64,000 nucleotides of DNA from an uncultured Bacteroidia bacterium. Its GTDB lineage: Bacteria > Bacteroidota > Bacteroidia > Bacteroidales > Prolixibacteraceae. The stretch covers positions 1-64,000 of the forward strand of contig CAIXZH010000119.1 of assembly GCA_903923905.1 (NCBI GenBank), written 5' to 3'. This document shows positions 16,178-17,203 of the stretch, one piece after another (positions within the stretch are counted from its first letter, which is position 1; the number at the start of each line of letters is the position of its first letter). The position numbers were made by a program, and so were the translations under genes. The notes below the pieces were generated by a model that was not told the DNA's origin, searched no databases, and saw only the letters and a list, made by a program, of their open reading frames with translations.

Positions 16178-17203
16178 CTAATTTATTAAATCCAGTTTAA
16201 CCATATCCTGAATATCAAGCATTCCAATTGGAAGACCGTTTTCAGTCACAATAATATTATCGACCTGATTGGCATTAAAGATGTCTGCGGCTTTTTGTAA
16301 AAAAGAGTCGCCTTCAATTGAAATGGGGTTTGCTGTCATACATTCTCCGACTGAGGCCGTATTAATGTGATCTCCCAATTTTCGCATCTGGCGCCGGAGG
16401 TCTCCGTCGGTGAAAATGCCGGTAAGTTTGCCATCTTTAGTGACTACAGAAACTGCGCCCATTCCTGAATCTGTCATTTTCAGGAGTGCATCCAACACTT
16501 TACAATCAGTATCAACGATAGGATTTGCTTCTGAAATAACGCTCTTTACCTGAATAGTCATCAGCCGGGTATGCTGAAAGAACTGGTCTGTGCCCAATTT
16601 GGTCAGGTGATTATCCGCCAGCTTTTTCATGATGCTCCATGGGAGTGTGATATTATGTGCTCCAAGGCTTAGAGCATCCTTGATATGTTCAGGATATCTC
16701 ACAGATGAGAACATCACCTTACAATCGTAGTTATACTCTTTAATGACCGCGACAATTTGTTTTATCAGTCCAAGGGCATCATGTCCCTGATCCTGCATCC
16801 GGCCTACCAACACACATACATAATTTGCTCCGGCAGTCAGAGCCATATATGCTTGCTGAATATTGTAAACCAGGTGAAGATTGATTAAGAATCCTTCGTC
16901 GTGGAGTTTTTTACACGCTTTTACCCCTTCGAAATTGACCGGAATTTTGAAAACTGTTCTTTTCTTGTCCAATCCAAGGTTTAACAAACGATGGGCTTCG
17001 GCAACAATTTGTTCAGAAGTTTCGCCCAACGCTTCAATCATCAGCACAGGGACCATCTTCGATAATCTGATAATGGCTCCGTCGATATCGGTAATCCCGT
17101 TTTTGTGCATAAATGTAGGTGTAGTGGTAACACCGTCAATGATCCCCAGTTTCAGGGCTTCTTCAATTTCAGCAAGGTTAGCCGAGTCAAGAAAAAATTC
17201 CAT
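16178..17203 (-). CDS. Fructose-6-phosphate aldolase/transaldolase-type protein fused to a CBS-domain pair
   Basis: N-terminus MEFFLDSANLAEI, GVTTTPT, VFKIPVN (Schiff-base Lys), LVYNIQQAYMALTAGANYV; C-terminus CBS pair with GIFTDGDLRR as in KdsD/GutQ-type proteins. Confidence 0.88.
   Translation of the reverse strand: MEFFLDSANLAEIEEALKLGIIDGVTTTPTFMHKNGITDIDGAIIRLSKMVPVLMIEALGETSEQIVAEAHRLLNLGLDKKRTVFKIPVNFEGVKACKKLHDEGFLINLHLVYNIQQAYMALTAGANYVCVLVGRMQDQGHDALGLIKQIVAVIKEYNYDCKVMFSSVRYPEHIKDALSLGAHNITLPWSIMKKLADNHLTKLGTDQFFQHTRLMTIQVKSVISEANPIVDTDCKVLDALLKMTDSGMGAVSVVTKDGKLTGIFTDGDLRRQMRKLGDHINTASVGECMTANPISIEGDSFLQKAADIFNANQVDNIIVTENGLPIGMLDIQDMVKLDLIN

What the first reader, a model, noticed from the sequence alone, without database searches (positions are those of the whole stretch)
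16178..17203. FSA/transaldolase-type aldolase carrying a KdsD-like CBS tail, in an operon with kdsA
Seen: one uninterrupted ORF joins a fructose-6-phosphate-aldolase/TalC-type barrel (MEFFLDSANLAEI, VFKIPVN with the Schiff-base Lys, LVYNIQQAYMAL retaining the FSA-type Tyr) to a CBS pair containing GIFTDGDLRR. It lies 6 bp after kdsA. Established: canonical KdsD (arabinose-5-phosphate isomerase) is SIS + CBS-CBS with a very similar FTDGDLRR motif, and KdsA consumes arabinose-5-phosphate. E. coli FSA is known to accept glycolaldehyde as donor with glyceraldehyde-3-phosphate as acceptor. Inference: the SIS domain of a KdsD-type protein has been swapped for an aldolase, giving an alternative or regulated supply of arabinose-5-phosphate (glycolaldehyde + G3P) for Kdo synthesis. 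Substitutions near the active site (TNP to TTP; FSA Gln59 position to Glu; PYVGR-type to VLVGR) suggest altered specificity.
Basis: partly seen in the sequence, partly recalled or inferred. Interest (0 to 1): 0.85.

Follow-up and report, generated by a model that had tools for sequence, protein, structure and literature searches.

The report
Transaldolase-CBS enzyme replacing KdsD
Many Bacteroidota, and some sulfate-reducing bacteria, lack the usual enzyme (KdsD) that makes arabinose-5-phosphate for the essential lipopolysaccharide sugar Kdo; in its place they carry a remodelled transaldolase fused to KdsD's sensor domain, so a textbook pathway appears to have a second, uncharacterised first step.

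Summary
The ORF is real: window 16178-17203, minus strand, 341 aa. It is a transaldolase/FSA barrel plus a KdsD-type CBS pair, last in an operon kdnA-kdnB-kdsA-fusion. The own genome has no recognisable KdsD.

In 397 same-class genomes, 79 carry the fusion and 244 a KdsD; only 3 carry both. KdsA occurs in 74 of the 79; the 5 without it carry degenerate copies lacking the Schiff-base lysine. None of 77 genomes with neither gene has an intact KdsA. One complete genome keeps the same kdnA-kdnB-kdsA-kdsC-kdsB operon without the fusion and has an ordinary KdsD instead. Two genomes pair the fusion with an ordinary KdsA and no KdsD.

The fusion therefore very probably supplies arabinose-5-phosphate in place of KdsD. 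Its chemistry is unproven: Lys86, Asp6, Glu57 and the phosphate site are kept, but the donor pocket is rebuilt (Asn to Thr28, Tyr/Phe to Leu132, Thr to His110, invariant in 79). No report of this enzyme was found in the open-access library searched.

The parts
16178..17203 (-). whole fusion gene (341 aa plus stop): transaldolase/FSA-type barrel followed by a KdsD-type CBS pair
16556..17203 (-). TAL/FSA barrel, residues 1-216: Lys86, Asp6, Glu57, Arg135, Ser167, Arg169 kept; Thr28, His110, Leu132 changed and invariant in 79 sequences, Cys130 changed (Cys in 74, Thr in 5)
16946..16948 (-). codon of the Schiff-base lysine, Lys86
   Evidence: alignment to FSA Lys85 / TalB Lys132; invariant in 79
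16181..16555 (-). CBS pair, residues 217-341, KdsD type
16391..16414 (-). FTDGDLRR motif shared with KdsD CBS pairs, residues 264-271
17210..18052 (-). kdsA (Kdo-8-phosphate synthase), variant clade 'KdsA-II'
18063..19139 (-). kdnB-like Kdo 8-oxidase (iron-containing ADH)
   Evidence: PDB 5k8c, E 2.6e-104
19147..20340 (-). kdnA-like 8-amino-Kdo transaminase
   Evidence: PDB 5k8b, E 7.3e-135

Best explanation
The protein is a functional replacement for KdsD: it makes D-arabinose-5-phosphate (A5P) for the neighbouring KdsA, which condenses it with PEP to Kdo-8-phosphate; KdsC, KdsB, KdnB and KdnA then give CMP-Kdo or its 8-amino form. The SIS isomerase half of a KdsD-like protein has been replaced by a transaldolase barrel, while the CBS pair that senses the pathway state (probably end-product feedback, for instance CMP-Kdo) has been kept. 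Shown: domain anatomy, operon, distribution, swaps with KdsD, and which active-site residues are kept or changed. Inferred: that the product is A5P, the role of the CBS pair, and the chemistry. Most likely chemistry: Lys86 forms a Schiff base with C1 of a pentose-5-phosphate whose phosphate sits in the Arg135/Ser167/Arg169 site; an A5P imine at C1 has the same chain length to its phosphate as the fructose-6-phosphate imine at C2. Glu57 and the new His110 act on C2, and Asp6 on the C2-C3 bond. I think net conversion of a pentose phosphate (ribose- or ribulose-5-phosphate) without free glycolaldehyde somewhat likelier (about 0.5) than net aldol addition of free glycolaldehyde to glyceraldehyde-3-phosphate (about 0.35).
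For: (1) Own genome has no KdsD over cut-off; its best KdsD-profile match is the fusion's CBS part. (2) Of 397 class genomes 79 have the fusion, 244 KdsD (E<=1e-30), 3 both; Fisher p 3e-34, not corrected for kinship. At least seven families hold fusion-only and KdsD-only genomes side by side. (3) KdsA is in 74/79 fusion genomes and in 0/77 genomes with neither, apart from one fragment. The 5 KdsA-less fusion genomes carry degenerate copies without the Lys. (4) G252, a one-contig 7.0 Mb genome, has kdnA-kdnB-kdsA(II)-kdsC-kdsB with no fusion (91-bp gap) and a KdsD of 320 bits elsewhere. (5) G424 and G393 hold an ordinary KdsA with the fusion and no KdsD. (6) Of 50 genomes around named fusion loci, 46 lack KdsD, including 5 of 5 Desulfobacterota. 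(7) kdsA on the same strand in 66 of 79 loci (median gap 24.5 bp), KdsC-like phosphatase in 48, kdsB in 20. (8) CBS pair of KdsD type. (9) Catalytic and phosphate residues invariant in 79.
Against: No activity has been measured. The linked KdsA-II differs from ordinary KdsA at four otherwise conserved positions, so the acceptor or its binding might differ. A few genomes have both KdsD and the fusion (G494, G552; three of 50, including Chryseolinea serpens; Prolixibacter denitrificans has a single-domain SIS relative). No gene for a glycolaldehyde source or any other substrate source is linked. GFAT isomerase activity can make A5P in eukaryotes (PMC11301363), so GlmS could be a hidden source.
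Confidence: 0.86

Rival explanations
1. Same role, but the chemistry is exactly the first reader's: a natural A5P aldolase joining free glycolaldehyde and glyceraldehyde-3-phosphate, so Kdo carbon bypasses ribulose-5-phosphate. (This is a version of the best explanation, differing only in substrate.)
For: E. coli FsaA/B do this reaction (PMC6298115, PMC9947464). The aldolase set Lys86, Asp6, Glu57 and the phosphate site is invariant. A5P bound through C1 mimics F6P bound through C2 (inference).
Against: No linked or obvious glycolaldehyde source; folate synthesis should make far less glycolaldehyde than Kdo needs (own estimate). TAL Asn35 and Phe178/Tyr131 are lost, and a new His110 suggests altered proton transfer.
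Confidence: 0.35
2. The fusion makes a different aldose phosphate for a KdsA of altered specificity (KdsA-II), giving a Kdo variant rather than Kdo.
For: KdsA-II is a separate clade with Ala61 to Asp (KANRS to KDNRS), Arg120 to Met, Lys139 to His, Gln205 to Arg, invariant in 70. G552 has two KdsA types plus both KdsD and the fusion.
Against: G252 runs the same KdsA-II operon with an ordinary KdsD and no fusion; G424 and G393 have an ordinary KdsA with the fusion and no KdsD. The linked kdsB is ordinary (over cut-off).
Confidence: 0.08
3. The barrel is not the A5P source; GlmS or another isomerase makes A5P and the fusion only regulates or scavenges.
For: Eukaryotic GFATs can make A5P and rescue an E. 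coli mutant (PMC11301363). A GlmS-like tandem SIS protein exists in the own genome (name inferred from length and tandem SIS).
Against: GlmS is near-universal (own knowledge), yet KdsA is found only with KdsD or the fusion. The active site is invariant in the KdsA-linked set and lost in the KdsA-less genomes.
Confidence: 0.04
4. An ordinary pentose-phosphate transaldolase or FSA that happens to carry a CBS tail.
For: Same fold and Pfam family.
Against: Four of five fusion genomes checked also show a separate stand-alone transaldolase relative. The fusion is a distinct clade, 100/100 support, on a long branch. It fails the FSA and transaldolase equivalog cut-offs and has lost the defining Asn and Phe/Tyr.
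Confidence: 0.02

Closest known systems
KdsD / KpsF / GutQ arabinose-5-phosphate isomerase (SIS + CBS-CBS)
   Same: CBS pair with FTDGDLRR; sits beside kdsA; appears to fill the same pathway step; near mutually exclusive with it
   Different: No SIS domain; the catalytic half is a TAL/FSA TIM barrel; scores 62.6 against a TIGR00393 cut-off of 203.7
TalC-type transaldolase / fructose-6-phosphate aldolase (PF00923)
   Same: Fold, Schiff-base Lys, Asp6, TAL-type Glu57, phosphate-binding Arg135/Ser167/Arg169
   Different: CBS tail; Asn28/35 to Thr, Tyr131/Phe178 to Leu, Thr109/156 to His, Ala129/Ser176 mostly to Cys; separate clade; linked to Kdo genes
E. coli FsaA as arabinose-5-phosphate aldolase (synthetic pathways, PMC6298115, PMC9947464)
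   Same: Would be the same product, A5P
   Different: There it is an activity used in engineered pathways; here it would be a dedicated enzyme of a natural biosynthetic pathway, substrate not yet known
Shewanella KdnA/KdnB 8-amino-Kdo pathway
   Same: Window KdnA and KdnB match PDB 5k8b and 5k8c strongly; the operon probably makes 8-amino-Kdo
   Different: The fusion is not part of the known KdnAB pathway (own knowledge) and also occurs in loci without linked kdnAB

Membership tests
KdsD/KpsF A5P isomerase (TIGR00393) | Full-length profile score over 203.7 bits | tested here: not met
   62.6 bits, CBS part only
KdsD/KpsF A5P isomerase (TIGR00393) | SIS domain | tested here: not met
   Pfam finds TAL_FSA and CBS only
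KdsD/KpsF A5P isomerase (TIGR00393) | CBS pair with TDGDLRR | tested here: met
KdsD/KpsF A5P isomerase (TIGR00393) | A5P-forming activity | not testable with these tools
   Only inferred from distribution and gene swaps
TAL/FSA superfamily (PF00923) | Pfam gathering score and TIM-barrel fold | tested here: met
   131.1 bits, cut-off 27; AlphaFold model matches 1vpx, TMt about 0.85-0.91
TAL/FSA superfamily (PF00923) | Schiff-base Lys | tested here: met
   Lys86, invariant in 79
Fructose-6-phosphate aldolase (TIGR00875) | Equivalog cut-off 245.95 bits | tested here: not met
   167.3 bits
Fructose-6-phosphate aldolase (TIGR00875) | Tyr131 and Gln59 | tested here: not met
   Leu132 and Glu57
Transaldolase | Asn35 and Phe178 (TalB numbering) | tested here: not met
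   Thr28 and Leu132
CMP-Kdo-sensing CBS pair | Binds CMP-Kdo | not testable with these tools
   Sequence is KdsD-like; ligand unknown here
KdnA/KdnB 8-amino-Kdo pathway (operon) | Both enzymes present and linked | tested here: met
   5k8b and 5k8c matches

The most novel reading that the evidence does not exclude
A dedicated natural enzyme that makes arabinose-5-phosphate by transaldolase-type Schiff-base chemistry: either a natural A5P aldolase, building Kdo from a two-carbon unit and triose phosphate, or a transaldolase barrel turned into a pentose-phosphate isomerase/epimerase. It would be a further catalytic solution for A5P formation besides SIS-type isomerases (KdsD and, in eukaryotes, the isomerase activity of GFAT), serving Kdo synthesis across a large part of Bacteroidota.
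Probability: 0.8. Interest if true: 0.85.

Novelty: new variant of a known kind. Interest (0 to 1): 0.8.

Why it matters
Kdo is an essential core sugar of lipopolysaccharide, and its pathway is taught as starting with KdsD. About a fifth of the sampled genomes of this Bacteroidota class, and some Desulfobacterota, appear to use a different enzyme for that step, currently named only 'transaldolase', 'TalC/MipB family fructose-6-phosphate aldolase' or 'CBS domain-containing protein'. It fills a recurring gap in genome-based pathway models, corrects misleading annotation, and offers a clear case of non-orthologous replacement in which a regulatory domain was kept and the catalytic one exchanged. 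If the chemistry is aldol-type, natural A5P aldolases would also be useful catalysts for glycolaldehyde assimilation and sugar synthesis.

Tried and rejected
Paper searches for transaldolase + CBS + Kdo/KdsA and for KdsD in Bacteroidetes gave no report of such an enzyme; the library is open-licence only. Considered and rejected: chance fusion or assembly artefact; house-keeping transaldolase; a fusion tied only to 8-amino-Kdo (kdnB and kdnA are linked in only 43 and 42 of the 79 loci); KdsA-II as proof of a different sugar (undercut by G252). A KdsA residue-contact paper was sought to interpret the KdsA-II changes but gave no usable contact list. The AlphaFold model confirms the fold only (pTM 0.59; residues 198-205 between barrel and CBS pair are poor), so no geometric claim about His110 is made.

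Full report
What is there. The ORF at 16178-17203 is real and lies on the minus strand. It encodes 341 residues: a PF00923 transaldolase/FSA barrel (residues 3-216) and two CBS repeats. It is the last gene of a tight operon on the minus strand: kdnA-like (19147-20340), 7 bp, kdnB-like (18063-19139), 10 bp, kdsA (17210-18052), 6 bp, fusion. KdnA and KdnB match the solved 8-amino-Kdo transaminase and Kdo 8-oxidase strongly, so this organism probably makes 8-amino-Kdo. Downstream at 15458-16012 is a nitroreductase-like ORF (my reading of the sequence), not a Kdo gene.

A conserved family. The closest relatives are full-length fusions in Bacteroidota. In whole genomes a profile of 15 fusions (A1) separates them cleanly: complete true fusions score 469-652 bits (one partial copy 324), a degenerate group 283-341, and stand-alone TalC/FSA proteins at most 179. 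The fusion barrels and the degenerate group form one clade with 100/100 support, split by a long branch from stand-alone transaldolases. Four of the five fusion genomes checked (G192, G393, G424, G552; none found in G494) also show a stand-alone transaldolase at 37-38% identity, so the fusion is not the house-keeping copy there; this was not checked in the own genome.

It replaces KdsD. The own genome has seven SIS-domain matches, but none is a KdsD; its best match to the KdsD profile is the fusion's own CBS part. In a phylum sample of 300 genomes the five fusion genomes all lack KdsD, while nearly all other same-class genomes have it. In 397 class genomes: fusion 79, KdsD at E<=1e-30 244, both 3, neither 77 (Fisher p 3e-34, not corrected for kinship). 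Swaps recur: families f4, f10, f12, f61, f67, f88 and f100 each hold fusion-only and KdsD-only genomes. [quoted passage not shown] here the rule holds once the fusion is added. KdsA is present in 74 of 79 fusion genomes and intact in 0 of 77 with neither gene, one fragment apart. Of 76 KdsD-only genomes tested with the window KdsA, 74 have a KdsA.

The five exceptions are informative. The five fusion genomes without KdsA are all in family f59 and carry a diverged copy. In all five the Schiff-base lysine is gone (Ser or Arg), as are the residues at Thr28, His110, Leu132, Arg135 and Arg169, while FTDGDLRR is intact. In contrast all 79 sequences of the comparison set (the window and 78 public loci) keep Asp6, Thr28, Glu57, Lys86, Asn108, His110, Leu132, Arg135, Ser167 and Arg169. 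Active-site integrity thus follows KdsA.

Natural swap experiments. Genome G252 (one contig, 7.03 Mb) has kdnA-kdnB-kdsA-kdsC-kdsB with only a 91-bp spacer where the fusion stands in its relatives, no fusion anywhere, and a 320-bit KdsD elsewhere. Its KdsA is of the fusion-linked type. Conversely G424 and G393 carry an ordinary KdsA besides the fusion-linked one, the fusion, and no KdsD. If KdsD and the fusion made different products these pairings would be hard to explain. Of 50 genomes around public fusion loci, 46 lack KdsD, among them all five Desulfobacterota; three have KdsD and Prolixibacter denitrificans has a single-domain SIS relative (at least one of these, G689, looks like the same genome as G424, so the two samples overlap).

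Neighbourhood. In 79 loci, kdsA is on the same strand in 66 (median gap 24.5 bp to the fusion; 49 within 100 bp), a KdsC-like phosphatase in 48, typically directly downstream, kdnB and kdnA in 43 and 42, and kdsB in 20. In KdsD genomes kdsD can sit next to kdsA in the same way (G434, G100).

Active site. Aligned with E. coli FSA, E. coli TalB, T. maritima and B. subtilis transaldolases: Lys85/132 is Lys86, Asp6/17 is Asp6, the transaldolase Glu is Glu57 (FSA has Gln59), and the phosphate ligands Arg134/181, Ser166/226 and Lys168/Arg228 are Arg135, Ser167 and Arg169. Changed: Asn28/35 is Thr28, Tyr131/Phe178 is Leu132, Thr109/156 is His110, Ala129/Ser176 is Cys130 (Thr in five). The roles of these residues in FSA and TalB are from general knowledge. 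So the lysine, the acid/base residues and the phosphate site are kept, and the pocket for the dihydroxyacetone part is rebuilt. The AlphaFold model confirms a transaldolase barrel but not the relative placement of the two parts.

Mechanism. Inference: A5P bound as an imine at C1 places its phosphate as far from the lysine as F6P bound at C2, so the kept phosphate site fits A5P or R5P better than Ru5P. That geometry allows aldol addition of glycolaldehyde to G3P, which E. coli FsaA is known to do (PMC6298115, PMC9947464), or conversion of R5P to A5P at C2. A Lys/His/Glu set could also support a ketose-aldose isomerisation. No glycolaldehyde source is linked. I lean to a pentose phosphate substrate, about 0.5 against 0.35, and this is not shown.

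KdsA-II caveat. From memory these lie in or near the A5P site. This keeps alive the idea of another acceptor, but G252 argues that KdsA-II works with KdsD's product.

Limits. Many genomes are metagenome assemblies; absence calls depend on completeness (own genome 97.8%, contamination 4.5%). No enzyme activity was measured, and genomes with both genes exist. The literature library covers only open-licence papers.

Noticed in passing
window 17210-18052; L122, L125, L126, L167: The fusion-linked KdsA is a separate clade (KdsA-II) with KDNRS in place of KANRS and three further invariant changes at otherwise conserved positions; its kinetics are unknown.
   Followed up: partly
L180-L184 (genomes G370, G395, G441, G340, G420): In family f59, KdsA is absent and the fusion survives with an apparently dead barrel (no Schiff-base Lys) but an intact CBS motif, perhaps reused as a sensor.
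   Followed up: partly
L085:10382-11083 and 47 other loci: A KdsC-like HAD phosphatase of about 233 aa follows the fusion in many loci (48 of 79) but the one tested falls below all curated KdsC cut-offs and has no Pfam match.
   Followed up: partly
L079:9268-9933: A 221-aa protein with no Pfam or NCBIfam match lies about 1 kb from the fusion, same strand, in 11 loci.
   Followed up: no
L070, L089, L100, L101, L117: Desulfobacterota carry the fusion and lack KdsD, which suggests transfer between phyla.
   Followed up: partly
L122-L124 (genome G552): One genome seems to hold two complete first steps of Kdo synthesis: KdsD with ordinary KdsA, and the fusion with KdsA-II and the KdsC-like phosphatase.
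   Followed up: partly
window 16030-16075: A perfect 22-bp tandem repeat (2.1 copies, CAAATTTAAACGCAGAGAACCG) in the spacer downstream of the fusion.
   Followed up: no
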